IMG/VR virus record: IMGVR_UViG_3300042324_002009
Span: 1-64,000 of that record
Length of the DNA: 64,000 bases
Source of the DNA: a virus
Reading direction: 5' to 3' (one strand)
Position numbers and translations under genes: made by a program. Below, piece after piece: positions 146 through 31,596 of the stretch. A model generated the notes under the pieces. The model was not told where the DNA came from. It saw only the letters and a list, made by a program, of their open reading frames with translations, and ran no database searches. Position 1 is the stretch's first letter. Each line of letters begins with the position of its first letter.

Positions 146-531
146 ATTGTGTCTACTCCAGCAAGGTCCCCAATCTCTAATTCTGAATCAATTAGATGTG
201 GAACAAAGTCGATTGTTGTGTATGCAGTATTTAAGAACTTAACTGTATTGTTAATGTTACTTGCACTTAGTCCAGCATTAACATAAATTATTCGATTATA
301 TTTTCGATTTCTTACGTTAATAGCCTTATCTATTAATTTCTTAATTTCGTAATTAATTAAGAATGACTGTATTTTGTTAGGAACTAGAATGTCCTGATCA
401 AATTTTTCTTTAATGATTTTATTTACGTTTAGTAAGTAATCACATTTTTGTTTTTTAATAAAAATTTGAATGAATTGTTTTTGATCCTTTACGAAAATTA
501 TTTCGAGAGTACGATCTACTGAATCTATCAT
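130..531 (-). CDS. Hypothetical protein, 133 aa
   Basis: Not recognised. The protein is Lys/Ile/Asn-rich, with a basic central part and a more acidic C-terminus (around SELEIGDLAGVD). A hydrophobic stretch near residues 82-90 (RIIYVNAGLSAS) could be a beta strand and turn. There is no signal peptide or clear membrane helix. Its ATG overlaps the TGA of the upstream dCMP deaminase gene by 4 nt (ATGA), so it is probably translationally coupled and is the last gene of the nucleotide operon. Its stop codon sits in the loop of the shared terminator. Any role in nucleotide metabolism rests on position only. Confidence 0.7.
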   Translation of the reverse strand: MIDSVDRTLEIIFVKDQKQFIQIFIKKQKCDYLLNVNKIIKEKFDQDILVPNKIQSFLINYEIKKLIDKAINVRNRKYNRIIYVNAGLSASNINNTVKFLNTAYTTIDFVPHLIDSELEIGDLAGVDTIKKGQ

Positions 532-983
532 ATTGAATCATGGTCGATTTTTTTAACCTCAATTCCAGCACGACGTAAAAAATCTAAGCCATTTATATCT
601 CGATATTCTTCAAGATATACAACTCGTTTAATACCTGATTGTAGAATTAATTTGCTACAGTCAGTACATGGGGAATAGGTAATATATAAGGTTGCACCAT
701 CACTACTTTGGGTAGATTTAGCGACTTTTGCTAATGCATTGGATTCGGCATGTAAAACATACCATTTAGTTTTATATTCTTTAAAAGAACCATCTTCATT
801 ATTAATAGCTTCTTCACATTCATTTTCAAAACCAGAAGGAGTTCCATTAAACCCATCTGATATGATTGTATTATTTTTTACAATTAATGCACCAACTTTT
901 TTTCTAGTTGCATGAGATAGCTCTGCCCAAACTTGGGCCATTTTAATGTAGGCTATATCTATTTTATGTTGCTTTTGATACAT
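528..983 (-). CDS. cd: dCMP deaminase (T4 cd-like)
   Basis: Zinc-dependent deoxycytidylate deaminase of 151 aa. The family converts dCMP to dUMP, which feeds dTMP synthesis. The cytidine deaminase signature is intact: H78-A-E80 (zinc ligand and catalytic Glu) and P105-C106-T-D-C109 (the other two zinc ligands). The N-terminal part with KVGALIVKNNTIISDGFNGTP is typical of phage dCMP deaminases. The gene lies 2 nt downstream of the thymidylate synthase/hydroxymethylase gene and overlaps the next gene by 4 nt, so it is in an operon. Length is close to other deaminases of this class (T4 cd is somewhat longer). Confidence 0.92.
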   Translation of the reverse strand: MYQKQHKIDIAYIKMAQVWAELSHATRKKVGALIVKNNTIISDGFNGTPSGFENECEEAINNEDGSFKEYKTKWYVLHAESNALAKVAKSTQSSDGATLYITYSPCTDCSKLILQSGIKRVVYLEEYRDINGLDFLRRAGIEVKKIDHDSI

Positions 984-985
984 TC

Positions 986-1870
986 TTATTTAGATTGAAA
1001 AGTTTTATCATATATCCATTTAAAAATATCTTCTCCATCTTGGAATAGGATAATATCATTGGACTCTGAGGTGATTGCATTAAATAAGGTTTTAAAATCA
1101 GAGGTTTGACTGCCATCTATTTCAATTAAGTCTGATACGATTGGCGGTAGTGTTATTGAGGTAAATGGTTCAGCTAGCATTCTTGAAGCAAGGTCATAGT
1201 GTCTATCATAGACGTGATATGAATTTGCAACATGAGTATAGGTCCCTAATTCAAGATCTGGATAAAAATGCTTTAGATGAGATAAGATTTGCATTTGTAA
1301 TGAACAAAAGAAGGCTACGTCGGTTGCAGTACCCCAGATTGCATCATTACTTCTCATAAATACACTCATATAAAGTTTATTTTGTCTGATATGTAAATTT
1401 GCATACATTGTACAAACAAAATCTTTATTTGAAGAATATTGGTGTTTTGGTTTATTAAAGTGTAGTACGGCCTGTCTGGTATTCTGATCAGTTGCTAAGC
1501 TTTGAATTGCCCATTGGTATTGACTAATTGCGTGCTCATTTTTTTCAGTAAATATTAGGTTTCCATATGCTGAATTGACAGTTCCATCGATATTTTGAAT
1601 TTCTTCCCAGAACTTTGCCCATTTTGAAATAAATGCTGAATCATTACGGCCTGCATAATACCATAAAAACTCAGCCGCAATATATTTCTGCTGAGAACCT
1701 CTAACTGAATTTTCGTAAAGACACTGAGTTGGGTCTTCAATAACTAGAGCAACATCTAGTAATTCTTTACTAGTCGTGCCTCGTGCATTATTAACAAGTC
1801 CATAAGTTAATAAAAACTTAATAGAATCACGATATGCATCAGCAAATGTTAAACCTTTAAATATTATCAT
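986..1870 (-). CDS. Thymidylate synthase / dCMP hydroxymethylase family protein
   Basis: Folate-dependent pyrimidine C5-methyl or hydroxymethyl transferase of 294 aa. Visible features are the phosphate-binding R132 (TRQAV), catalytic C153 in DFVCTMYANLHIR, the RSND motif at 173-176 and H219/Y221 in YHVYDRH. The catalytic segment resembles T4 gp42 (dCMP hydroxymethylase) more than T4 Td, which has PPCHMFYQF. At the position where thymidylate synthases carry the Asn that reads uracil, this protein has D184 (GTATDVAFF). T4 gp42 also has Asp there, and it selects cytosine. The neighbouring dCMP deaminase and the dUTPase in the window would supply dUMP, which argues for a normal synthase. The exact substrate is unresolved. 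Confidence 0.85.
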   Translation of the reverse strand: MIIFKGLTFADAYRDSIKFLLTYGLVNNARGTTSKELLDVALVIEDPTQCLYENSVRGSQQKYIAAEFLWYYAGRNDSAFISKWAKFWEEIQNIDGTVNSAYGNLIFTEKNEHAISQYQWAIQSLATDQNTRQAVLHFNKPKHQYSSNKDFVCTMYANLHIRQNKLYMSVFMRSNDAIWGTATDVAFFCSLQMQILSHLKHFYPDLELGTYTHVANSYHVYDRHYDLASRMLAEPFTSITLPPIVSDLIEIDGSQTSDFKTLFNAITSESNDIILFQDGEDIFKWIYDKTFQSK

Positions 1871-2058: not shown

Positions 2059-3720
2059 TTAAATGATGGTTAGGTCTGAGAAATGATCAGTATTTTCAAC
2101 TTGGATTTTAGTATCAAAGTATTCTTCTGGCAATGGGTCATGTGAAATTACAAATACTGTCATATTATATTTCTTTGAAAACGTTTTAAGTAGATCAACT
2201 ACTCTAAATATTGAGTCAACGTCTAATGACGAAAATACTTCGTCTAAGAAAAGAAGATTTACTTTATTATGCTTTAGTTTAATTAGTTCAAGAATACATA
2301 AAAGTACAATTAAATTCATTTTCTTTTGTTCTCCAGAAGATAATGAGTCTGGCGAAACTTGCATACCTAAATGAGTAATGATTGGATTAAATTCTAAATC
2401 AAACTCAAATGCAAATTTGAATTCAAGCACCTTTGCTGTTTTTAAGATCTTTTTATTTAATAATGGAATAATTTGACTCATTAGCATACGCTTCATACCA
2501 TTATCAGATAGGATCATTTCCATTTCTTGCGAAACTTTTAATTTTTCAGTTTGAATAGCTAGACTATTACCAGCTGTACCGATTTCAGTTTCAATATTTT
2601 TTATTACTTCAACTAGATGTTTATCTGACGTCTGTTTACCTTGTTGAGATAATTGTTGGATTTCTCTTTTTACTGTAGAGACTTGAGCGTCAATTTTATA
2701 AAATCTATCCTTTGCTTTATTTTGGTTTGACTCTATTGACGATAAGTCAAATTCATTACTCTTAATTGTTTGAGAAATATCAGGAATAGAGGACTCTTGC
2801 GATTCTTTTAATTTTAATAATTTGTCCTTGATTTGACTATGAATTTCATCAGTTAAATCAGATAAACAATGAGGACATTTATTTTTATTGTAAAGATCAA
2901 GCTTCTTTTGTATTTCTGAAATATTTGCTCTAATTGTAGTTAATTCATCACGTGATGTTCTAACCATTGTTTGTATTTTTGAAAGCTCTGTTGTAAAACT
3001 ACCTGCTTCAATTCTAGCAGACTCTTTTAAATCAACTAATTTTTTTAATTCAATATTAAGCTCTTCAATTCTAGCAGTATTAGTTGCTTGAATTTCATTT
3101 TTTAAATTTTCAAGTTGATTAACTGATGATTCTAATAATCTTTGGTTACTTGCAATTGACGATTCAAGTGGAGTAATTTCGCCTTTAACGCGTTTAGTAT
3201 CTTCTTTAGATATTTTAGACATGTCATTAACAATATCTAGTCCAAAAATCTTATCAATAATTTGACGTTTATCTGCTGGGCTTAATTTAACAAAACTTTT
3301 AAAGTCATTTACTGATAAGCTGATTGTGTTTGAGAATACATTAAATGGTAATTTAGTTAATTCCTCTTCAATAAAATCGTCTACTCTTCGTTTATCTGGC
3401 AAATTATATTCAGCTCCATCAATTGAAAGCTTTGAGAAATTGGGTTCAAGACCACGCTCTATATCAATAAGTCTACCATTCCCTGTTGTAAATTTAATTT
3501 GGGTATAAGCATTCTTATTAATTCGGTTTGGGATTTCTTTAGTTTTACGAATTGCTGATTTTCCATAAATTGCAACAGTCAATGCATCAGAAATTGATGA
3601 TTTACCACTGCCGTTTTTACCCTGAACCAAAATTAATCTAGGCTCATCAGTAAATTTAAAAGTCTGTAATTTATTGCCGTATGAGCAAATATTTCTAAAG
3701 GAAAATTCGTGTATCTTCAT
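2059..3720 (-). CDS. 46: gp46-like recombination nuclease subunit (SbcC/Rad50-like ATPase)
   Basis: ATPase subunit of the phage Mre11/Rad50-type complex. With gp47 it resects DNA ends for recombination-dependent replication. The 553 aa show Walker A at about 34-42 (GKNGSGKSS), a coiled coil interrupted by a zinc hook C282-P-H-C285, the ABC signature LSSGEQ at 460-465, Walker B LLFLDE at 489-494 and a D-loop SSLD at 497-500. Length matches T4 gp46 (about 560). Its ATG overlaps the TAA of the upstream SET-like gene by one base (TAATG), giving translational coupling in a gp47-SET-gp46 operon. Confidence 0.95.
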   Translation of the reverse strand: MKIHEFSFRNICSYGNKLQTFKFTDEPRLILVQGKNGSGKSSISDALTVAIYGKSAIRKTKEIPNRINKNAYTQIKFTTGNGRLIDIERGLEPNFSKLSIDGAEYNLPDKRRVDDFIEEELTKLPFNVFSNTISLSVNDFKSFVKLSPADKRQIIDKIFGLDIVNDMSKISKEDTKRVKGEITPLESSIASNQRLLESSVNQLENLKNEIQATNTARIEELNIELKKLVDLKESARIEAGSFTTELSKIQTMVRTSRDELTTIRANISEIQKKLDLYNKNKCPHCLSDLTDEIHSQIKDKLLKLKESQESSIPDISQTIKSNEFDLSSIESNQNKAKDRFYKIDAQVSTVKREIQQLSQQGKQTSDKHLVEVIKNIETEIGTAGNSLAIQTEKLKVSQEMEMILSDNGMKRMLMSQIIPLLNKKILKTAKVLEFKFAFEFDLEFNPIITHLGMQVSPDSLSSGEQKKMNLIVLLCILELIKLKHNKVNLLFLDEVFSSLDVDSIFRVVDLLKTFSKKYNMTVFVISHDPLPEEYFDTKIQVENTDHFSDLTII

Positions 3721-4214
3721 TAATTTAAAAAATAGGTAAGTTCTTGATCTGGGTCAATATCTTGTACTGTATAGAATTTATATAGTTTTTTCTCAGAATC
3801 ATAATCCCAATTGATATTAGGAGACGTGGATTTTCTGTAAATTGAGCCAAAGCCTAATAGGATTGCATGAGAATCGATATGCAACATTTTATTTGGATTG
3901 ATTACATCATATACAATTGCTTTAAATTGCTCTGCTGAAATAAGACCGCGATCTAGCCTCTCCTGTAAATTAAGATCTGCCAGTTTTTCAGCAATCTCGC
4001 GCTCTTTATTAAGACCGTCTGGATTAACAAACAGCCGGTTATCTAATACTTGATCGTGGTTTTTAAGTAAAAGTTGAGTTTTTTGGCTTATTGGAATCCA
4101 TGCACAAAACTCAATGGTTGAATTTCTATAAATTTGAGCACTACTAAATACGCCAAATTCTTTAGAATTTATAGGCTTTACATATAAACTAGATAGGATG
4201 CTTGGGTTACTCAT
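3720..4214 (-). CDS. SET-domain-like protein, 164 aa
   Basis: Pattern resembles a compact SET (protein-lysine methyltransferase) domain. There is an N-terminal GVFSSAQIYRNSTIEFC (21-37), as in the GVFA...GexIE start of SET domains, then a helical insert. The C-terminal core is GFGSIYRKSTSPN (121-133), which corresponds to G-x-LxNHsxxPN, and DQELTYFLN (156-164), which corresponds to GEELTxxYG. The NHS-type motif reads RKS, and the final Tyr/Gly is altered, so activity is uncertain. The gene overlaps gp47 by 8 nt upstream and gp46 by 1 nt downstream. It therefore sits in the middle of the nuclease operon. A degenerate, non-catalytic SET fold is also possible. Confidence 0.6.
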   Translation of the reverse strand: MSNPSILSSLYVKPINSKEFGVFSSAQIYRNSTIEFCAWIPISQKTQLLLKNHDQVLDNRLFVNPDGLNKEREIAEKLADLNLQERLDRGLISAEQFKAIVYDVINPNKMLHIDSHAILLGFGSIYRKSTSPNINWDYDSEKKLYKFYTVQDIDPDQELTYFLN

Positions 4215-5319
4215 CGGCTGATTGTTGTTTTACTAAATTATGAATTTCTATAAATTTTTGAGCTAATTCAGTTTTAAAAGTTTGTGAATAGTCTTTTGTC
4301 TTTATGTAGCTTTTAAATATATCAATAACATTAAATTGATCTTCTGGATTAAAGTCAGTTGAGGTAGACTCATCTGTTACCTGATCGACATATGTAAAAA
4401 ATTCAACTTTTCTATGAGTTGATTTTGAAATAAGTTCCAAAAATCTAGTTACTGAGAATTTATTAACAAAATTTACACTAATCATAATATCAACAAATGA
4501 ATTATTTAATTTTTCAATTACGTCATTTGCTGGCATTTCCAATAGTTCAAATATATCAAATTTCTTATAGACTGGAGATTGAGTATTTTCAATAAATTTC
4601 TCAGTTAATTTTTGAGAAGACACATCTAATTGATAAAAACCTTTAGTATTATCACGATCTCCTCTATCCATTTGGTATGGTGTTCCAGTATAGAGAACAT
4701 TTTTAAATTCTTGACGATGATGAATATGGCCAGCATAAACACGTTTATAAGAAGATAACATATCTACTTCAATTCCATGTTCAACCTTTGTCCATTTATT
4801 AAAGCTAAGACCCTTAATGTCTGCATGACAAATAATATATTCACATAAATCTTTGTGGTCAGTTATTATTTGGTTTAAACGATTAGTGTCTTCAACCCAA
4901 GGTAACATTAAAAAGTTATGGGAACCGTTAATTGTAATAATTTCAGGATTTTCAAATACATGAATATTATCAGCAATATGTGAAATTGCTTTTAAAGAGT
5001 GAACAACGTTTCTATCTTTATAATAGACGTCATGGTTTCCAATAATGATATAGATACCTCTTTTAAATTTCTCAGAAAGCTTTTTAAAAATAGTTAAGGC
5101 TTCATCGTGTACTCGAACATTAATTGATTCACGCGAATGAAATACGTCGCCTTCTAAAAATAACACATCTCGGTCTTCATCAAAATCTTCATCTACTTTA
5201 TTAATTAAAAAGTCCAATAGAAAATCCTTTTGTATTTGAATCCATTCTATTGAATTATTTTTTATTCCTAAATGTAAATCACCAACTAGTGTTATTTTTC
5301 GAATATTTGTAAGCTTCAT
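4207..5319 (-). CDS. 47: gp47-like nuclease subunit (SbcD/Mre11-like)
   Basis: Metallophosphoesterase nuclease of 370 aa, partner of gp46. The family motifs are in order: GDLHLG with D14/H16, LEGDVFH with D58, IIGNHDVYY with N95/H96, CHADIKG in the middle and GHIHHRQEF with two metal-ligand His residues, followed by YTGTPYQMDRGD. Length is slightly above T4 gp47 (about 340). It lies 1 nt downstream of the 223-aa acidic protein gene and overlaps the SET-like gene by 8 nt. The C-terminal third (residues 230-370) lacks obvious motifs and is probably the gp46-binding part. Confidence 0.95.
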   Translation of the reverse strand: MKLTNIRKITLVGDLHLGIKNNSIEWIQIQKDFLLDFLINKVDEDFDEDRDVLFLEGDVFHSRESINVRVHDEALTIFKKLSEKFKRGIYIIIGNHDVYYKDRNVVHSLKAISHIADNIHVFENPEIITINGSHNFLMLPWVEDTNRLNQIITDHKDLCEYIICHADIKGLSFNKWTKVEHGIEVDMLSSYKRVYAGHIHHRQEFKNVLYTGTPYQMDRGDRDNTKGFYQLDVSSQKLTEKFIENTQSPVYKKFDIFELLEMPANDVIEKLNNSFVDIMISVNFVNKFSVTRFLELISKSTHRKVEFFTYVDQVTDESTSTDFNPEDQFNVIDIFKSYIKTKDYSQTFKTELAQKFIEIHNLVKQQSADE

Positions 5320-5320
5320 T

Positions 5321-5992
5321 TTAAAATATTTTATAGTTCTTACCCATGCTATCTAAAAATCCGTATTTACTATTTAATTCAACTAACAAAAGTTCCTTAT
5401 TTTCATAAGTTAACATATCGAATATTTTTTTATATTCCATATTAAGAGTTGAAGAAATTGATTCAAGTACTTGGATTGGGCTAATGAATACGGTTGTATT
5501 TGTTCCAGTACTCAACCCATTTAAAATTATACCAAATATTTGGTTAATTTGTACTTTTGTAAATTTCTGCTTTTCAGGCTCATCGCCTAGGATCTCCTGC
5601 AGTTCAGAGCAACCTTTGATAAAGTTATATATGTCTCTTTGTACAATAGTATAGTCTACGTGATCAGAATATCGGTCTGGGTCAGACATTGAATGCGCAG
5701 CTGAACCACTTTCTAACTTAATAGCTGAACCTGAAGTTGGCGAATTATTATCGTCTTCATCATTATGTTCGTATCCTAAATTATAAGTATTTCCAAAAAT
5801 CTTATCATTTCTTTTTAGGTCAGAATAGGCAAGTTTACGGCGTTCTAATTCGTCTTCGTCATAGTCTCCTTCAATTAATCCATCCTCTTCAATAATGTCG
5901 TCTTCGTTGTCAAATTCTAAGGTATCGTCTTGTTCAACGGTTAAATCATTATCTAGATCTGAAAAATCGTCTGGGTGTTTTCTTGGTGCCAT
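5321..5992 (-). CDS. Hypothetical protein with acidic N-terminus, 223 aa
   Basis: Not recognised. Residues 10-60 are extremely acidic (runs such as EDDIIEEDGLIEGDYDEDE). A low-complexity linker follows (residues 75-105), then a more ordered C-terminal half (about 110-223) with predicted helices around FTKVQINQIFGIILNGL. Acidic tails in phage replication proteins often mimic DNA or dock on partner proteins, but this is only an analogy. It sits between the helicase gene (16-nt gap) and gp47 (1-nt gap), so co-expression with replication and recombination genes is likely. Confidence 0.75.
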   Translation of the reverse strand: MAPRKHPDDFSDLDNDLTVEQDDTLEFDNEDDIIEEDGLIEGDYDEDELERRKLAYSDLKRNDKIFGNTYNLGYEHNDEDDNNSPTSGSAIKLESGSAAHSMSDPDRYSDHVDYTIVQRDIYNFIKGCSELQEILGDEPEKQKFTKVQINQIFGIILNGLSTGTNTTVFISPIQVLESISSTLNMEYKKIFDMLTYENKELLLVELNSKYGFLDSMGKNYKIF

Positions 5993-6008
5993 TTGTGTAT
6001 TTGTATTT

Positions 6009-7544
6009 TTATATCGAATTTAGCAGATCATCATAATCCGCAGAAGTTCGATGGGCTTGGACTGGTACTGGCATGGCTAGTGCAACATCCATTGGTATTA
6101 AATTTTGAGGTAAAGTTGTAGTATTCGTATGAGCAGTTTGATATTGAGTTCTCATTTGATTTTCAAGAGACTGAGTATCATCGTCATCTGAATAAAATTC
6201 GCTAGCTGGATCGTATTCTTCAGTTAGTTTAGCAAACTCATAACTCATTCTATACATTTTAAAACTTTCAGTATAGCCACCATCTCTATTTGCAATTAAC
6301 TTAATTTTCATACGCTTTTCCATAGGTCCACGAATTAATCCAAATAGAGAATCTACTGTGTGTACTAGACCAAATGATTCAGCAATATCTGACATACTTA
6401 AGTCCTGATCATCAACTGCATCTCGTTTAATTTGCGTTGCTGTAATAATACACCATTCATTTCGGATTGCAACTGCTCTAAGTTCTTCAGAAATAACCTT
6501 GATCTTTTCATAAGTATTGCCTTGCTCACGAAGAGGTCTCATTAAGTTAATATAGTCAACTACAATTACGGTAAATTTAATTCCAGAATTTTGTTGAACT
6601 TTTAAAAAGTAATTTTCTACATCAATTGCTGAGGCAGTTCCAGTAGGAAATTCCTTAACGATTAATTGGCCAAGCTGAGGCATATCTAACTTAAGCTTTT
6701 GTATTTTACTAGTAACTTCAGACACTTGATTATTATCTAGCATTGAATCATAGTCCTTAAACGGAATGCTTAATATGCTTGAACCAAGCCTCTTCATGTA
6801 TTTACGATCAGACAATTCAAGCGTTCCAATTCCTACATGACAACCTGCCATAAATGCTCTGGCTGCAATATTTGAAAGAACCATTGATTTACCTACTTTA
6901 GGCCTTCCTTGAAAAACTACTAACGTTTTTGGATTCCAACCGCCGCCTAAGGTTTTATCAAAGAATGGGAAGCCTGTTGGATTTCCAATTTTTGAAAGTT
7001 GAACGTGATCAATTGAGGTAAAAAAGTTTAGGCCGGATTCAGCGCTAGTAAATGAAACGTTTAATTTGCTATTAAATTTTTCTCTAACATCATTTGTAAT
7101 TAATTCAACATTCTCCGGATTAATATCGGTTGTCTTTAAATACGACAATACATCAATTACTGATGCATTTAAGTTTTTATAGAAAATAAAAGCTTTTGTG
7201 TATTTAAAAAGAAACTCATAATTATAACTAGATAAGTCTACTTCAAATAGTGAATTAAATTTTTGTTCTGAAATATCTAGATTTGAAAGATTTGCAATTT
7301 GGCGTAATTCATTTCGAGTTGGAATTTTAGAATATTCAATGAACCATTTTTTAGCTTCACGATATAGTCTTTGTAGGGTATCATCGTTAAAGTAATGAGC
7401 TTTAATTAATGGAATAACTTCTCGCTTGTCTAATGAGTCAAAGTTCTTAGGTTTAATGATTACATCATTATCGTCTTCGGTTAGAACAAAGTTAAAAATT
7501 ATTTTTTCGAGAAGCTCAATGTTCTCTTTGAAATCTATCATCAT
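6009..7544 (-). CDS. 41: Replicative DNA helicase (DnaB/T4 gp41-like)
   Basis: Hexameric RecA-fold helicase that unwinds DNA at the fork. The 511 aa contain Walker A GRPKVGKS (213-220), a TLELSD segment (241-246) corresponding to the catalytic-Glu region of DnaB, Walker B VIVVD (326-330) followed by YINLMRP, and a TQIKRDA stretch resembling the TQxxR H3 motif. The N-terminal 170 residues are helical and would form the primase-interacting domain. The protein starts with two Met codons, so the start could be one codon later. A 6-nt gap separates it from the upstream 112-aa gene. T4 gp41 is 475 aa. Confidence 0.92.
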   Translation of the reverse strand: MMIDFKENIELLEKIIFNFVLTEDDNDVIIKPKNFDSLDKREVIPLIKAHYFNDDTLQRLYREAKKWFIEYSKIPTRNELRQIANLSNLDISEQKFNSLFEVDLSSYNYEFLFKYTKAFIFYKNLNASVIDVLSYLKTTDINPENVELITNDVREKFNSKLNVSFTSAESGLNFFTSIDHVQLSKIGNPTGFPFFDKTLGGGWNPKTLVVFQGRPKVGKSMVLSNIAARAFMAGCHVGIGTLELSDRKYMKRLGSSILSIPFKDYDSMLDNNQVSEVTSKIQKLKLDMPQLGQLIVKEFPTGTASAIDVENYFLKVQQNSGIKFTVIVVDYINLMRPLREQGNTYEKIKVISEELRAVAIRNEWCIITATQIKRDAVDDQDLSMSDIAESFGLVHTVDSLFGLIRGPMEKRMKIKLIANRDGGYTESFKMYRMSYEFAKLTEEYDPASEFYSDDDDTQSLENQMRTQYQTAHTNTTTLPQNLIPMDVALAMPVPVQAHRTSADYDDLLNSI

Positions 7545-7550
7545 ATTTTT

Positions 7551-7889
7551 TTAATTCGAAATTATATAAAATTTTAAAAATTCAGATTGGTCAATTATTA
7601 TAAATTCACCTTTCTTAATTAGGATATTGTCTTCTATTAAGTCTTTCATTAATAGTTTTAGTTTTTCTAAAAATTCAGCAGTTAGTTTATCTCCAAATAC
7701 ATATTTTAGAGTCTTTGTTGAAAACTTAATATCTTCTAGGTCAAATTCTTTAGATTTGACTTGAGTAACTTTGACAATGTATGACAGGATATCGAATACA
7801 AAGTCTTGCCTAGTTGGATAGCTAGGCAAGGCTGTATGCGACTCTAGTAAGTATTTAAGAGGAATATTTGGCTGTAATTTAAAGGTCAT
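7551..7889 (-). CDS. Hypothetical protein between uvsX and helicase genes, 112 aa
   Basis: Not recognised. It is a small mixed alpha/beta protein. The C-terminal half, helices around LTAEFLEKLKLLMKDLIEDNILIKK followed by short strands (EFIIIDQ), has the feel of a winged-helix fold. Its start overlaps the end of uvsX by 11 nt and it ends 6 nt before the helicase gene, so it is tightly embedded in the replication operon. A helicase-loader or mediator role (T4 gp59 or UvsY equivalents) would suit the position, but no sequence motif supports it. Confidence 0.7.
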   Translation of the reverse strand: MTFKLQPNIPLKYLLESHTALPSYPTRQDFVFDILSYIVKVTQVKSKEFDLEDIKFSTKTLKYVFGDKLTAEFLEKLKLLMKDLIEDNILIKKGEFIIIDQSEFLKFYIISN

Positions 7890-9069
7890 TATCAGAATCA
7901 GTTAAATCTTCTAATTCGTCTATTTCCATTTCGTCTATTCCATCTTGTGTTTCAGGGAATTTAAACGTAGGCTTAATTGTAGTTTCGTCTAACTGCGTTA
8001 ATACTTCATGAGTAAATAACCTAGCTGAGAAAAATTCTTTAACTGGAACAGCATCACCATTATGCTTAATGATATAGGTTTTTCCAAGTTTTTTTGGTAG
8101 AAAATAGAAAGTCTCTCCAGCTACTTCAAATTTTGAACATAATTCAGATTCGTCTGGTTTTAGTTTAGAGAATTCCTTTTCAGTTAACTTATTACCTCTA
8201 CCTACTCCACATGATTCCCAATTAACATATTGTTCAAGGCCTACAAATTGATTCATACCTTTATGGAATGAAATATGGAATTCAATATCAATAGGTCGAG
8301 CTAAACGATTCTTTTTAGTTTTAGAACGAACAATAATTCCAGTAGTGGTTTTAGCTTCATCACGAAGAGTTCCTTTACTCAACATTAAGATAATTGATGC
8401 AGAGAATTCTGGACCTCCACCGCCTGACATACCCTTTGGCGTATATTGATCCATTGAGGCATATGTGTGGTTTGTAAAAATAAATGGAACTTTATAATTT
8501 GAAAGATCCAAAGTTAATGATTTGAATAGTGACCTCATTTCTTTTGCACGAAGTCCCATATCTGCAGCGTTTTTACCTGCATCCATATCACGTTGACTTT
8601 TATCAGTATCAAGCATGCCTACTGAATCTACAAATAGTGCAATCTTAAGTCCTGGATTCTCCTTAATTGTTTCAATTAAGTCATGCACATAAAATTTAAC
8701 TTCGCTAATAAGACCCATACGTAAATATTTTAATTTACTTAAGTCTACTCCAAATTTAACATAGTCACTTGAATCAATTGCACCTTCAGTGTCAATATAA
8801 ATTACCATGTAATCCATTTTTTGTAATTCACGAACTGCATTTAAACATAGGAATGTTTTACCTGAACCTGAATCTCCAGCAATTCCAATACTTCGAGTAT
8901 TAGGATAACCTCCAAATAAGGATCCTGACATTTGTGCATTTAATAAGTAATTTCCAGTTGGAATGTACTCTTCAATATCAGAGAAGCCTCTGATTTCAAT
9001 TTTTGATTTGACTTTTTTCTCGAGCAAGTCGTTAAACTTGGCGAATGCGTCCATTGTTGATTTTGCCAT
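7879..9069 (-). CDS. uvsX: UvsX-like recombinase (RecA family)
   Basis: Strand-exchange ATPase of 396 aa, almost the length of T4 UvsX (391). Walker A is GDSGSGKT (65-72), a conserved DTEG follows about 20 residues later, and Walker B is ALFVDSVGML. A Gly-rich mobile DNA-binding loop is seen in MSGGGGPEF. The C-terminus is acidic (EMEIDELEDLTDSDNDL), as in UvsX, where it modulates filament formation. Its location upstream of the helicase gene fits recombination-dependent replication. A terminator hairpin lies just before its start, so it probably has its own promoter. Confidence 0.95.
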   Translation of the reverse strand: MAKSTMDAFAKFNDLLEKKVKSKIEIRGFSDIEEYIPTGNYLLNAQMSGSLFGGYPNTRSIGIAGDSGSGKTFLCLNAVRELQKMDYMVIYIDTEGAIDSSDYVKFGVDLSKLKYLRMGLISEVKFYVHDLIETIKENPGLKIALFVDSVGMLDTDKSQRDMDAGKNAADMGLRAKEMRSLFKSLTLDLSNYKVPFIFTNHTYASMDQYTPKGMSGGGGPEFSASIILMLSKGTLRDEAKTTTGIIVRSKTKKNRLARPIDIEFHISFHKGMNQFVGLEQYVNWESCGVGRGNKLTEKEFSKLKPDESELCSKFEVAGETFYFLPKKLGKTYIIKHNGDAVPVKEFFSARLFTHEVLTQLDETTIKPTFKFPETQDGIDEMEIDELEDLTDSDNDL

Positions 9070-9085
9070 GTGTATAAAATTAATA

Positions 9086-9115
9086 TTTTAGTATCTTTTA
9101 CAAAGGATACTAAAA
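9086..9115 (-). terminator. Perfect 10-bp hairpin between Nudix-like and uvsX genes
   Basis: TTTTAGTATC (9086-9095) pairs without mismatch with GATACTAAAA (9106-9115) around a 10-nt loop. It lies immediately after the stop codon of the Nudix-like gene (9121) and before uvsX. On the minus strand it is followed by an AT-rich tract without a long T run, so it may be a weak terminator or attenuator or protect a 3' end. Confidence 0.65.
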
Positions 9116-9120
9116 TGGGT

Positions 9121-9684
9121 TTAGTTAAAATATGAAACTAACAAAAATGCTCCAGATAAGACGGTTGCGTCTGAATAATCTCCATTTACAATTTGGTGAA
9201 AACCTACCTTTGTAATAGTAGAGTTTTCTTTTGTAAAATGATCCTTTGAGAGGTTTCGAGTAAACAAAATATTTGGAAGGTTAGTTAGGTCAATTCCATA
9301 ACAGTGCATACTTAAAGTCATTGGAACATTCATTGAAATATCTCCAAGATAAAATATACTATTTTCGGTGAGACCTGTATCGTCAAGGTTAAGTCCAGCC
9401 TCTTCAAGTAGTGCTCTACATACTGAATCGTATGGAGTCTTATCTAAATCTGGATTAACTACATCAATTATAAGAGTGCTAGCATTCTGTTTATTCATTA
9501 GATTAGGCGAGTCTAAAAGAAAAATAGACTTGAGCCCATCATTTGAATTACGTTCAAATGGTATTAAACAAATATAGTCTAGCTCGCACGATAGGTAATG
9601 AGTTGAGTGTTGATCTTTGGTTAAAGCCAATATGTTAAAGTTTCCTATTTTGCTAGGAGTTTCATTAGATATTTGATTATGCAT
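9121..9684 (-). CDS. Nudix-like hydrolase, 187 aa
   Basis: The segment PYDSVCRALLEEAGLNL (about residues 84-100) fits the second half of a Nudix box (RExxEExGU). However, the Glu after Arg is Ala, and the upstream G-x5-E is not evident. The surrounding alternating strands (YICLIPFER, SIFLLDSP, FYLGDISM) match a Nudix alpha/beta/alpha sandwich. Nudix enzymes cleave nucleoside diphosphate-X compounds; T4 NudE is a phage example. With the box incomplete, catalysis is uncertain. The gene overlaps the upstream 210-aa gene by 8 nt. Confidence 0.6.
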   Translation of the reverse strand: MHNQISNETPSKIGNFNILALTKDQHSTHYLSCELDYICLIPFERNSNDGLKSIFLLDSPNLMNKQNASTLIIDVVNPDLDKTPYDSVCRALLEEAGLNLDDTGLTENSIFYLGDISMNVPMTLSMHCYGIDLTNLPNILFTRNLSKDHFTKENSTITKVGFHQIVNGDYSDATVLSGAFLLVSYFN

Positions 9685-10309
9685 TAGCTGTAGATTTTTT
9701 AGTAGGTGTTGTACTCAACATTTTCTTCATAGTCTTTTTAATTGAGTCCGCCGTTACATTGTTATTTATATAGTCAGACAATTTTGTCAAAAACTCTTCT
9801 TTATTCTTAGAGTTTGAATACATCATCTTTAATAAATTTTTACTAGGTAATTTAATTTTAACTGAAAGAGCTAAATCGGTGTCTTCTAGTGAAAACATAC
9901 CAAATAAGTCACCTGGATCAGTAGAGACCTTAAGTTGAGCCGGTTGAGATGGAGGTGGAGCTATTGGTTTTGGTGCAATAATTTCAGCCCTAAATTCGGC
10001 TGGAATTTCTTCAGTTACTTTAAAATCTTCATTTAATGAAGGAATGTAATTGATTGACTGAATTTCAGCCATTGACATTGGCTGTTGATCTTCAGTGATC
10101 ATCATTAGGTCAGAAGAAACTCGGTCAGTATCAAGTTGAGTACCGTCTGATAGTATTGCCATGAATCTGCCATTTCTAGCCGGCAAAACATCTCTAACTT
10201 GGACTACTTTTCCTAGTTTAGTTTTATCATTGGTTTTTATCCATTGAAAGTCGTTTGATTGGAAGCTGCTTTTTATTGCAACTAAGGTATCAATATCGTA
10301 GTTATTCAT
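9677..10309 (-). CDS. Hypothetical protein after the polymerase fragment, 210 aa
   Basis: Not recognised. The start is taken as the ATG at 10309, 19 nt after the polymerase stop. A longer GTG-started version (from 10345) would overlap the polymerase and adds a Lys-rich leader, so it is less likely. A possible beta-rich N-terminal domain (residues 1-75, around GKVVQVRDVLPARNGRFMAILSDG) resembles a small SH3/KOW-like barrel. A Pro-rich linker (PKPIAPPPSQPAQ) follows, then a helical basic C-terminus. It shows no polymerase motif B or C, so it is not the missing polymerase half. Confidence 0.7.
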   Translation of the reverse strand: MNNYDIDTLVAIKSSFQSNDFQWIKTNDKTKLGKVVQVRDVLPARNGRFMAILSDGTQLDTDRVSSDLMMITEDQQPMSMAEIQSINYIPSLNEDFKVTEEIPAEFRAEIIAPKPIAPPPSQPAQLKVSTDPGDLFGMFSLEDTDLALSVKIKLPSKNLLKMMYSNSKNKEEFLTKLSDYINNNVTADSIKKTMKKMLSTTPTKKSTANA

Positions 10310-10328
10310 AATTAGGTTTTTTATTTTT

Positions 10329-11711
10329 TTAAGCCACTTTTTCACTTGACAATTGTTCTTCTAATTTTTTCATTTGATTCTTTGTGTCTACTCGACCATT
10401 ATACAGTTTAGTAAGAATTGTTCGAGCAGCTGAATCCATTTTATTTGTGAAGACTGTATCGTTTTTTGTTAATATTTGGTCAGGTTGTAGTTCAACACCA
10501 GGTTTAATTTTTCCCAAATACGCATCTGGCGAAATATTAAATTGAATTTGAATGTTTGGATACATTGAGGCAAAGTCAAAACACGAAACATATTTGTAAT
10601 ATCCAGGCTCAGGCTTTGCAACATACGCTCCATCATACGTTGCATCTTCTTCTAAGTCTCTTCGATCATTTGCCATATAACGGCCTCTATCTAAAAACTC
10701 ACGACACATTAATGATTCAGTAATGAATACTGCTGAGAATACTTTTGAAACATCGACCTTTGCAAATTTTGAAATTGCAAATGCAACATCAAGTAGTCCA
10801 AGCTTATCTTCAATTAGTTTAATAAGAATTGTATCAATAATATTATACTTGATAAAGTTTTCAATATCTTGTTGAGCTTCCATCATGGTTGCATATTCAC
10901 TATGGAGTTTAGTTGTTCCTAATACTAGGTTAGCAATATAATCTAATTTATAATTCTCAACAACTTTATAGGGTTTAGTATTCATAAATACTTCCATGTA
11001 ATCTAAAAGACCTAAATGAATTGGCATTTTTGATTTACCAATTAAGGTTTTAGACGGCATAGTTTGCATTGGATCAATATCCAATTTTTTACAACGATTA
11101 ATTAGATAAATCCAGTCAAATCCAATAACATTCCAACCAGTTAAGAATGGAATTTTTGGAAGAACTTTATGGAAAAACGTTTTCATTAACTCTTCTTCAG
11201 TTTCAAAGAAAAGATATTTAAGGGTAAATGTTTGACCGTGTGCTTTAAAGTAGTCATTCACTTCATCTTGCATTTGTAAAATTGGAGACTCTTCCAATTT
11301 CTTCATGGTTGACATTACAAAACAAACATTGTCCTCATTAACAAAAGTAATTAAATTAACTGGCATTGCGGCTTTTGCCGGATCAGGAAACTCTTGTGAA
11401 GTTAACTGAATCTCAATATCTAAATAATATTTTTTTGGACTGTCATCTGAATAGATTGAAGCAAGTTCAGTTTCATCTAACCTAGTTTGGGTTAATTCCT
11501 CAAGCCTAAATTTACTTAACCATTTACCTTGAACTTTTTTTAGGAACTTTCCATCCCAGTTTCTGTGTTCAGTTGGGGTTGGGGTTAAGTTCCAATTATA
11601 AAGATCGTGTGGAAGTATAGGCTTTTTCATAAAGCCGATTGTACCATCTGGTTTATAATAAGAAATGACTAGAGTCGAGTCTTCTGTGTGAAATTCTGTG
11701 CTTACAATCAT
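10329..11711 (-). CDS. 43: Family B DNA polymerase, N-terminal half (exonuclease plus motif A)
   Basis: Replicative polymerase fragment of 460 aa. The 3'-5' exonuclease motifs are present: Exo I LDIEI (D98/E100), Exo II GWNVIGFD (N193-D199) and Exo III YNIID (Y289/D293). Polymerase motif A is DFASMYP (379-385) with the catalytic Asp. The frame stops at KVA about 75 residues later, before motif B (Kx3NSxYG) and motif C (DTDS), which are not found downstream in any frame of the following gene. T4 gp43 is about 900 aa. The C-terminal half must be encoded elsewhere (a split polymerase) or the gene is broken. Confidence 0.9.
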   Translation of the reverse strand: MIVSTEFHTEDSTLVISYYKPDGTIGFMKKPILPHDLYNWNLTPTPTEHRNWDGKFLKKVQGKWLSKFRLEELTQTRLDETELASIYSDDSPKKYYLDIEIQLTSQEFPDPAKAAMPVNLITFVNEDNVCFVMSTMKKLEESPILQMQDEVNDYFKAHGQTFTLKYLFFETEEELMKTFFHKVLPKIPFLTGWNVIGFDWIYLINRCKKLDIDPMQTMPSKTLIGKSKMPIHLGLLDYMEVFMNTKPYKVVENYKLDYIANLVLGTTKLHSEYATMMEAQQDIENFIKYNIIDTILIKLIEDKLGLLDVAFAISKFAKVDVSKVFSAVFITESLMCREFLDRGRYMANDRRDLEEDATYDGAYVAKPEPGYYKYVSCFDFASMYPNIQIQFNISPDAYLGKIKPGVELQPDQILTKNDTVFTNKMDSAARTILTKLYNGRVDTKNQMKKLEEQLSSEKVA

Positions 11712-11731
11712 ATTAATTAATATACCAAAGA

Positions 11732-12169
11732 TTAATGAGTTCCAGTTGAACCAAATCCGCCTTCTCCACGTTCAGTTGTCTCAGAATAAAGCTGGTCAAA
11801 TAAAACTTCCTCAATTATATCATAAAATACCGGAACAAGTACAAACTGGATCAATTTTTGACCTGGAGTTATGAGTTGGTCAGTAGTTCCAACATTAATC
11901 ACATGGATATGAATTTCTCCTTGATAATCTTCATCGCAGACTTCAGCACCTTTAATTAATAACTGCTTAGTTGCAACTCCTGACTTGTTAAAGGCAGTTA
12001 ACATATACCCAGTAGGAATATCTGCTTTAATACCAGTTGGAATTAGTGCAGAGTTTCCAGGAAGTAATATTAATTCTGGATAATCATTTGGAACAAAAAA
12101 ATCTATACCTGCAGATTTAGGGGTTCCTCTGGTTGGGATCTTAACGTCCCGAATTCTTGAAATTTTCAT
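11732..12169 (-). CDS. dut: dUTPase (deoxyuridine triphosphatase, trimeric type)
   Basis: Converts dUTP to dUMP and pyrophosphate, keeping uracil out of DNA and supplying dUMP. All five family motifs are visible in 145 aa: I AGIDF (20-24), II NKSGVATK (61-68, replacing the usual RSG), III from G74 to N92 with the key D81-Y82-x-G84, IV PGQKLIQ (102-108) and V RGEGGFGSTG (134-143). Full length. It is the first gene of the minus-strand block and lies opposite the sheath gene across a 174-nt divergent region. It ends 20 nt before the polymerase start. Confidence 0.95.
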   Translation of the reverse strand: MKISRIRDVKIPTRGTPKSAGIDFFVPNDYPELILLPGNSALIPTGIKADIPTGYMLTAFNKSGVATKQLLIKGAEVCDEDYQGEIHIHVINVGTTDQLITPGQKLIQFVLVPVFYDIIEEVLFDQLYSETTERGEGGFGSTGTH

Positions 12170-12209
12170 TAAATGTATGTTTTATATAGTATTACTTGTT
12201 CTTTTACCC

Positions 12210-12235
12210 CCAAAGTGAAAAAAGTTTAACTTTGG
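12210..12235. promoter_or_regulatory. Inverted repeat in the dUTPase/sheath divergent region
   Basis: CCAAAGT (12210-12216) and ACTTTGG (12229-12235) form a 7-bp inverted repeat around a 12-nt A/T-rich spacer. It lies between the divergent early and late units, upstream of both. On the minus strand a TATATAAAAC stretch before the dUTPase start could serve as a -10 element. An operator or a hairpin are both possible, and the sequence does not decide. Confidence 0.35.
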
Positions 12236-12248
12236 ATACAATATTGCT

Positions 12249-12258
12249 GATAAATAAC
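12249..12258 (+). promoter_or_regulatory. Late-promoter-like motif GATAAATAAC (distal, sheath)
   Basis: Exact copy of the motif repeated before late genes in this window. It lies 86 nt before the sheath start, upstream of a second, closer copy. T4 late promoters have TATAAATA at the -10 position, read by gp55. Confidence 0.6.
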
Positions 12259-12307
12259 TTTATCAACTCGTAGACCGTTTTTAAATTTATGAATTTGGGA
12301 CGAATGC

Positions 12308-12321
12308 GATAAATAAATAAC
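12308..12321 (+). promoter_or_regulatory. Late-promoter-like motif GATAAATAAATAAC (proximal, sheath)
   Basis: An extended copy of the repeated late motif lies 23 nt before the sheath ATG, in the spacing range seen for the other late genes (16-30 nt). With the copy at 12249 it makes a tandem arrangement, fitting a highly expressed structural gene. Confidence 0.7.
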
Positions 12322-12343
12322 TTCAAAATAATACGCAAAAGCG

Positions 12344-30852: not shown

Positions 30853-31596
30853 TTACTTTATTATTATATCCGATTTTTCAATTTGGTTTAGGTTAGAAAG
30901 CTTTAATGCCACTTGAATTAGCGTAATAACGTCTTTTTGGCAGTATTCTTTAATTCCTTCAACATTTCCGGCCCAATAATTCTCATGCACTTGATCGCCT
31001 TTCATTGCATCTTTGGGGGAATCTATTCCAAGAACAGTCGCTAACAGATCAAGAGATGTGAAACCTTCTTGCCATGCACCAAATGACCAAAGTTCTGAAG
31101 TATCAATAATTGAAGTTTCCCAAGGTTTTTTATCCCATACTTGAAGAGGGGTCGCTGGCTCGATATTGAGAATAAATGCACGTTTACATAGGAATGGAAC
31201 ATCAAATCTTTTAACATTATGACCAGCAATCTTTACGCCGGTTTTTGAAAGAGCTGACATTAGTTTAAATGACTGACGTAAGATTTCAGCTTCGTCATCT
31301 CCGGAATAGGAAACAATTTGAGCAGTTGGCGCGCCATCTACAAATTTCATTTTGCCGAATGAAACACAAACAACTCTACCAAATTCAGCATGTAGAGCTG
31401 ATTTCATTTGAAAAAGTTCTTCATCTGACTTGTCTTTATTATCTGGGTATTTAGCCCCTAACTGATTTTTAAGGATTTCTGCTTTAGCTGACCATAATTC
31501 TTGCATTTTAGGTGAAAGAGAATCAGCATGATTGACAGTACCGGCTGTTTCTATATCAAAAAACAGCATTTTTTCTAATTGATGTGGATCGAACAT
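30853..31596 (-). CDS. DEDDy-type 3'-5' exonuclease (DnaQ/PolB-exo-like)
   Basis: Stand-alone proofreading-type exonuclease of 247 aa. Exo I is FFDIETAG (D14/E16), Exo II is [14 protein letters not shown] (His/Asn then catalytic Asp) and Exo III is [10 protein letters not shown] (Tyr-x3-Asp, the DEDDy arrangement). The layout matches the predicted 3'-5' exonuclease related to the PolB exonuclease domain, common in Bacteroidota. The phage polymerase fragment already has its own exonuclease, so this enzyme may serve recombination, repair or RNA processing. It is the first gene of the groEL unit, at the divergent control region. Confidence 0.85.

What the first reader, a model, noticed from the sequence alone, without database searches (positions are those of the whole stretch)
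10329..11711. DNA polymerase gene stops after motif A
Seen: exonuclease motifs and polymerase motif A are intact, then the frame ends at residue 460; motifs B and C are absent here and in the next gene. Known: some T4-like phages (Aeromonas phages 25 and 44RR) have gene 43 split into two cistrons in the fingers region. Inference: this is a split polymerase whose second half lies elsewhere in the genome, possibly moved apart by a mobile element now lost.
Basis: partly seen in the sequence, partly recalled or inferred. Interest (0 to 1): 0.62.

Follow-up and report, generated by a model that had tools for sequence, protein, structure and literature searches.

The report
Phage DNA polymerase in two genes
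The copying enzyme of this large freshwater virus of bacteria is encoded as two half-proteins whose genes lie about 38-49 thousand letters apart; the missing half exists in the virus's relatives, and the same cut is an old, shared trait of a whole group of giant phages.

Summary
ORF 10329-11711(-) (460 aa) is the N-terminal half of a T4-like family B DNA polymerase: three exonuclease motifs, motif A and the first fingers helix, then a stop. It is not an assembly error or a relic: IMG/VR relatives (41-100% identity) all end at the same place. The second half (43B, ~540 aa, motif B 20 residues after its start, motif C DTDS) was found in 13 of 20 related contigs, 37.7-49 kb downstream of 43A on the same strand, with conserved virion and replication genes between. 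In this 81.7-kb contig it falls ~28 kb beyond the left end. The cut loses nothing: Pfam DNA_pol_B ends at profile position 144 in 43A and starts at 145 in 43B. Both halves are under purifying selection (dN/dS 0.05-0.09), and no complete PolB, PolA or Pol III alpha was found. No intein lies at the junction, so non-covalent assembly is most likely, as reported for Aeromonas phage 25. The split is shared by one deep clade of jumbo and huge phages (PAU, PTm1, Lak, 462-735-kb phages); other splits at the same fingertip arose separately in Aeromonas phages, cyanophage S-CREM2 and Atu_ph07. New variant of a known kind. 'Moved apart by a lost mobile element' is not supported for this lineage.

The parts
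10329..11711 (-). 43A: N-terminal half of a split T4-like family B DNA polymerase (N-terminal and 3'-5' exonuclease domains, palm segment with motif A D379, first fingers helix)
   Evidence: ORF; Pfam and PHROG; motif positions; AlphaFold2 model pLDDT 83.5 with RB69 gp43 as best PDB matches, E 1e-22
10331..10430 (-). C-terminal part of 43A: fingers helix (model residues 427-458) ending ...KKLEEQLSSEKVA-stop; site of the cut at the fingers tip
   Evidence: alignment; helix in model; same end point in relatives
11732..12169 (-). dUTPase gene directly upstream of 43A on the same strand; a dUTPase-like ORF also lies directly upstream of 43A in the 462-kb phage LR756500
   Evidence: phrog_135; LR756500 neighbour ORF in locus L103, (identified by sequence resemblance only)
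9677..10345 (-). next gene, 222 aa, no family match; conserved beside 43A in relatives; not the missing half

Best explanation
The replicative PolB (gp43) of this jumbo phage is a two-chain enzyme. 43A (460 aa, here) carries the exonuclease, motif A and the first fingers helix. 43B (~540 aa, an unlinked gene about 38 kb downstream on the same strand, off the left end of this contig) carries the second fingers helix, motifs B and C, and the rest of palm and thumb. The gene is cut at the turn at the tip of the fingers. The two chains are made separately and most likely fold together without covalent joining: the catalytic aspartate of motif A comes from 43A and those of motif C from 43B, so neither half should polymerise alone. 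The split is ancient and shared by a clade of jumbo and huge phages. In this lineage the halves sit in two gene clusters on either side of a virion-gene block. Shown: the split, its conservation, the second half in relatives, its place, its integrity and selection on both halves. Inferred: non-covalent assembly, polymerase activity, and that this particular phage genome carries 43B.
For: 43A relatives in IMG/VR down to 41% identity all stop at the same point. 43B with motif B and DTDS is found in 13 of 20 relatives, 37.7-49 kb downstream on the same strand; permuted copies of the ~270-kb genome give 43 kb across their ends. G016, 99% identical in 43A and collinear over the window's first 31 kb, has 43B at 150-1772(-); by that synteny it would lie at window position about -29480 to -27858. 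Pfam DNA_pol_B ends at 144 in 43A and begins at 145 in 43B. dN/dS 0.05-0.09 for both halves where dS was not saturated. Only 43A and 43B match PF00136, and PolA and Pol III alpha models find nothing, in relatives up to 270 kb. 43A folded alone has a poorly defined palm segment (350-386, pLDDT under 50, containing motif A), as expected if it needs 43B. Precedent: phage 25 gp43A and gp43B co-purify and have polymerase activity (PMC2988022). A group of 13 split jumbo and huge phages plus unsplit MaF61 has 100/99 support.
Against: 43B is not in the 81.7-kb contig itself; its presence is inferred from near-identical collinear strains. Assembly of the two chains was not modelled or tested. AlphaFold for 43B alone is poor (mean pLDDT 69), though its best PDB hits are RB69 gp43. 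Rejoining after transcription or translation by an unknown route cannot be excluded, although no intein or known intron was found.
Confidence: 0.9

Rival explanations
1. Assembly or frameshift error, or a dead polymerase relic.
Against: Independent contigs share the same end; dN/dS 0.05-0.09; catalytic residues invariant in the alignments; 43B intact elsewhere.
Confidence: 0.01
2. The halves are rejoined covalently: protein trans-splicing by a split intein at the fingers junction, or RNA trans-splicing of a split intron.
For: Split inteins do interrupt PolB at a different site (motif C of 43B) in PTm1, LR756500 and Lak-A2, and trans-spliced PolB is known in Nanoarchaeum equitans (own knowledge).
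Against: 43A ends and 43B starts directly in fingers helices with no room for intein parts; each half has its own stop and start; no Rfam intron match in the window (Rfam was not run on the 43B region of relatives).
Confidence: 0.03
3. 43A now acts alone as a proofreading or repair exonuclease, and polymerisation is done by another enzyme.
For: Exonuclease motifs are all intact in 43A.
Against: Motif A and the fingers helix are kept; 43B is kept and constrained; a separate stand-alone exonuclease exists (30853-31596); no other polymerase was detected with PolA, Pol III alpha and PolB models.
Confidence: 0.03
4. The separation was caused by a homing endonuclease or transposon that split gene 43 and was later lost (a rival about origin, not about function).
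For: In other clade members the halves are 2-10 kb apart with TnpB between them (MA9V-2) or inteins and a VSR-type endonuclease beside them (PTm1); phage 25 has a seg-type endonuclease there (PMC2988022).
Against: No such element recognised in the 38-49 kb between halves in this lineage; the present spacing can also be explained by ordinary genome rearrangement; endonucleases may have invaded an already split gene, as PMC2988022 notes for phage 25.
Confidence: 0.3

Closest known systems
Split gene 43 (43A/43B) of Aeromonas phages 44RR and 25
   Same: T4-family PolB cut in the fingers, two cistrons; phage 25 halves co-purify and are active (PMC2988022)
   Different: Adjacent cistrons (140 bp between matches in 44RR); independent origin in the tree
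Split PolB of Sphingomonas phage PAU (gp105/gp110), Tenacibaculum phages PTm1 and pT24, Chryseobacterium phage MA9V-2
   Same: Same clade; halves end and start around the same fingers tip
   Different: Halves 1.9-3.7 kb apart in PAU, PTm1 and MA9V-2; PTm1 43B is further split by an intein at motif C and is annotated as 'intein-containing split DNA polymerase precursor'
Huge phages LR756500-LR756504, LR745206 and Prevotella Lak phages
   Same: Same clade, same cut
   Different: Halves 10 kb to over 200 kb apart, on opposite strands in all examined but LR756500
Split PolB of Methanothermobacter thermautotrophicus (Kelman 1999, cited in PMC7776575)
   Same: PolB made of two polypeptides
   Different: Archaeal; cut position not compared here
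PHROG families 2062 (N half, 502 positions) and 1918 (C half, 382 positions)
   Same: 43A matches family 2062 along almost its whole length, and the first 364 residues of 43B match family 1918
   Different: Clusters named only 'DNA polymerase'; no description of the split found

Membership tests
T4-type family B DNA polymerase (gp43) | 3'-5' exonuclease motifs I-III | tested here: met
   D98/E100, N194/D199, Y289/D293 in 43A, invariant in alignment A3 (numbering one lower there)
T4-type family B DNA polymerase (gp43) | Motif A, motif B (KxxxNSxYG) and motif C (DTDS) | tested here: met
   motif A D379 in 43A; K20, N24 and D98-TDS in 43B of the near-identical strain; B and C are not in the window itself
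T4-type family B DNA polymerase (gp43) | Fold like RB69 gp43 | tested here: met
   43A: RB69 entries best, E 1e-22, TMq 0.67; 43B: RB69 best but weak model, E 2e-8; profile hits
Two-cistron split gp43 (as in Aeromonas phages) | Cut in the fingers between motifs A and B, both halves kept | tested here: met
   (second half in relatives)
Two-cistron split gp43 (as in Aeromonas phages) | Adjacent cistrons | tested here: not met
   37.7-49 kb apart in relatives
Two-cistron split gp43 (as in Aeromonas phages) | Halves associate and polymerise DNA | not testable with these tools
   needs expression and assay
Intein-fractured polymerase gene (Dassa 2009 type) | N- and C-intein halves at the break | tested here: not met
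   no intein sequence at 43A end or 43B start
Moraphages (PMC12619734) | Membership of that genome clade | not tested
   genome size 253-271 kb of the longest relatives, tail sheath, dUTPase and SSB resemble their core list, but their genomes were not compared

The most novel reading that the evidence does not exclude
A two-chain, genetically unlinked replicative PolB is the ancestral and stable state of a large clade of jumbo and huge phages (218-735 kb), kept while the two genes scattered to distances of over 200 kb and to opposite strands; the fingers tip is a preferred point where PolB can be cut, used at least four times independently in phages. The unsplit PolB of Flavobacterium phage MaF61, which falls within or beside this clade, may be a re-fusion.
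Probability: 0.6. Interest if true: 0.62.

Novelty: new variant of a known kind. Interest (0 to 1): 0.5.

Why it matters
A replicative polymerase whose active site is shared between two proteins from distant genes is unusual. It raises testable questions: how the halves find each other, how their amounts are balanced, and whether the break is used for regulation. It shows that the fingers tip tolerates a chain break, which gives natural designs for split polymerases. It also warns that PolB trees and annotation pipelines applied to jumbo phages may use only one half: PAU gp105, for example, is unnamed in one of its two records.

Tried and rejected
Searched the whole 81.7-kb record for the second half: only 43A and a stand-alone exonuclease appear. 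The remaining 17.7 kb holds repetitive collagen-like genes. Split intein at the junction: none. Rfam introns in the window: none. PolA and Pol III alpha as replacement: none. Single origin of the jumbo-clade split together with S-CREM2: rejected (AU p about 1e-54; that tree held only a fragment of Atu_ph07 and labelled it unsplit by mistake, corrected). Split group of 13 held as a clade without MaF61: not rejected (p 0.35). Shared upstream motif GTTATTTAT before both halves: it reads ATAAATAAC on the other strand and looks like a late promoter of divergent genes, so it is not evidence of co-regulation. Sliding clamp between 43A and 43B as an ancestral order: PHROGs gave no support. Literature: no paper in the held library describes this distant split; subscription papers, including Petrov et al. 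2010 J Mol Biol 395:457, were not readable. Script stopped early on one row; its printed rows are used.

Full report
What is there. The ORF at 10329-11711 on the minus strand encodes 460 aa. It holds Exo I (D98/E100), Exo II (N194/D199), Exo III (Y289/D293) and polymerase motif A (D379). It then ends inside the first fingers helix (...TKLYNGRVDTKNQMKKLEEQLSSEKVA). Pfam finds the PolB exonuclease domain and only positions 16-144 of the 453-position DNA_pol_B profile. The next gene (9677-10345) has no polymerase match.

Not an error. A scan of IMG/VR gave 46 loci with 66-100% identity, and a profile scan reached 41%. In 54 relatives read out, every ORF ends at the same point, 457-478 aa long. 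Both halves show dN/dS of 0.05-0.09 in the pairs where dS was not saturated, with invariant catalytic residues. This is a working gene.

The second half. Twenty longer related contigs were searched with the PolB profile phrog_262. Thirteen carry a second match that starts where 43A stops (profile 488-498 to about 840). The ORFs (485-542 aa) begin like MSKQLEQQIKSLDLKQNAIKILINSFYG, so motif B lies about 20 residues from the start; motif C is YTDTDS. Pfam DNA_pol_B begins at profile position 145 in 43B, where 43A ends at 144. From motif A Asp to motif B Asn there are 81 plus 24 residues, against 113-116 in three unsplit cyanophage and pelagiphage enzymes. Nothing substantial is lost at the cut. 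43B carries a C-terminal extension in this lineage whose function is unknown.

Where it is. 43B lies 37.7-49 kb downstream of 43A on the same strand; two permuted copies of the ~270-kb genome show the same distance across their ends. The segment between is collinear in four genomes read out: replication genes on the 43A strand, then a block of virion and other genes mostly on the other strand, then 43B, which is followed by primase, head-closure and portal genes. Contig G016, collinear with the window's first 31 kb and 99% identical in 43A, places 43B at about window position -29480 to -27858. The window's contig starts at window base 1, so 43B is most simply off its end.

How it works. 43A alone models well (pLDDT 83.5), with RB69 gp43 as best structure match. 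Its palm segment 350-386, which includes motif A, is below 50 pLDDT; this fits a palm sheet that needs the strands of 43B. 43B alone models poorly (69.0) but still finds RB69 gp43. The metal-binding aspartates come from both chains (established PolB chemistry). No intein is present at the junction, and no known intron RNA was found in the window. No PolA, Pol III alpha or second PolB was detected in relatives up to 270 kb. The simplest mechanism is non-covalent assembly of two chains, as shown for Aeromonas phage 25, whose 43A and 43B co-purify and are active (PMC2988022). Assembly and activity here are inferences.

Who else has it. The same fingers-tip cut is in Sphingomonas phage PAU (gp105/gp110), Tenacibaculum PTm1 and pT24, Chryseobacterium MA9V-2, the Lak phages and the 462-735-kb phages LR7565xx/LR745206. 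In a tree of both halves the 13 split rows of this kind, together with the unsplit Flavobacterium phage MaF61, form one group with support 100/99. Distances grow from 2-4 kb (PAU, PTm1, MA9V-2) through 10 kb (LR756500) and 38-49 kb (this lineage) to more than 100-200 kb on opposite strands (Lak and the largest phages). Aeromonas 44RR/25, cyanophage S-CREM2 and Agrobacterium Atu_ph07 each sit next to unsplit relatives elsewhere in the tree, so the tree needs several separate splits at nearly the same place. MaF61 has a long branch and an AU test does not exclude that it lies outside the split group (p 0.35); re-fusion is possible but unproven.

Split polymerase with its second half elsewhere: right. 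Mobile element: endonucleases, a TnpB and split inteins do occur in or near the two halves in other clade members, but none was recognised between the halves in this lineage, and the Aeromonas split is an independent analogue.

Known or new. Split gp43 is known in Aeromonas phages; PTm1 and S-CREM2 records name split subunits; PHROGs holds half-families 2062 and 1918. I found no paper in the held library that describes the unlinked split as the shared state of jumbo and huge phages. The moraphage paper (PMC12619734), possibly about a near lineage, lists two DNA-directed DNA polymerase VOGs as core; the parts read do not remark on a split. I rate this a new variant of a known kind.

Noticed in passing
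window 30853-31596(-): Stand-alone 3'-5' exonuclease of family DNA_pol_B_exo2 (PF10108, E 4e-15), a second PolB-exonuclease-like gene in addition to the exonuclease domain of 43A; a match of the same kind is present in relatives.
   Followed up: partly
window 12250, 12313, 20839(-), 52491, 55959, 60306: ATAAATAAC occurs 8 times against 2.4 expected, six of them 20-100 bases before ORF starts, resembling the T4 late promoter TATAAATA; a like motif lies before the gene divergent from 43B in relatives.
   Followed up: partly
L318 (PTm1) 9522-12328; L124/L119 (LR756500); L125/L123 (Lak-A2); L322 (PA5oct) 3998-9224: A second PolB break at motif C (DTDS), with an intein half on each side in the first three (PA5oct judged from its annotation and the paper on its relative MIJ3) and an endonuclease or other ORF between in PTm1, LR756500 and PA5oct; makes a three-piece polymerase in PTm1, LR756500 and Lak-A2.
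   Followed up: partly
L316 7962-10946: Flavobacterium phage MaF61 has an unsplit 994-aa PolB that falls within or beside the split clade: possible re-fusion.
   Followed up: partly
L088 7660-8826: A TnpB-family gene lies between 43A and 43B of Chryseobacterium phage MA9V-2.
   Followed up: no
L319 1878-4847: Agrobacterium phage Atu_ph07 PolB is cut at the fingers into two adjacent genes, while its relative Phosso is unsplit.
   Followed up: partly
L131 150-1772(-), residues about 380-540: Lineage-specific C-terminal extension of 43B beyond the thumb, no family match.
   Followed up: no
L002 1-18708 (window 63001 onward): Very long collagen-like Gly-Thr-Ser/Gly-Ser-Asn repeat proteins (over 2200 and over 3900 aa), probably tail-fibre proteins.
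   Followed up: no
window 3720-4214(-): SET-domain protein (PF00856, E 3e-6) between the SbcC/SMC-like and SbcD-like recombination genes of a phage.
   Followed up: no
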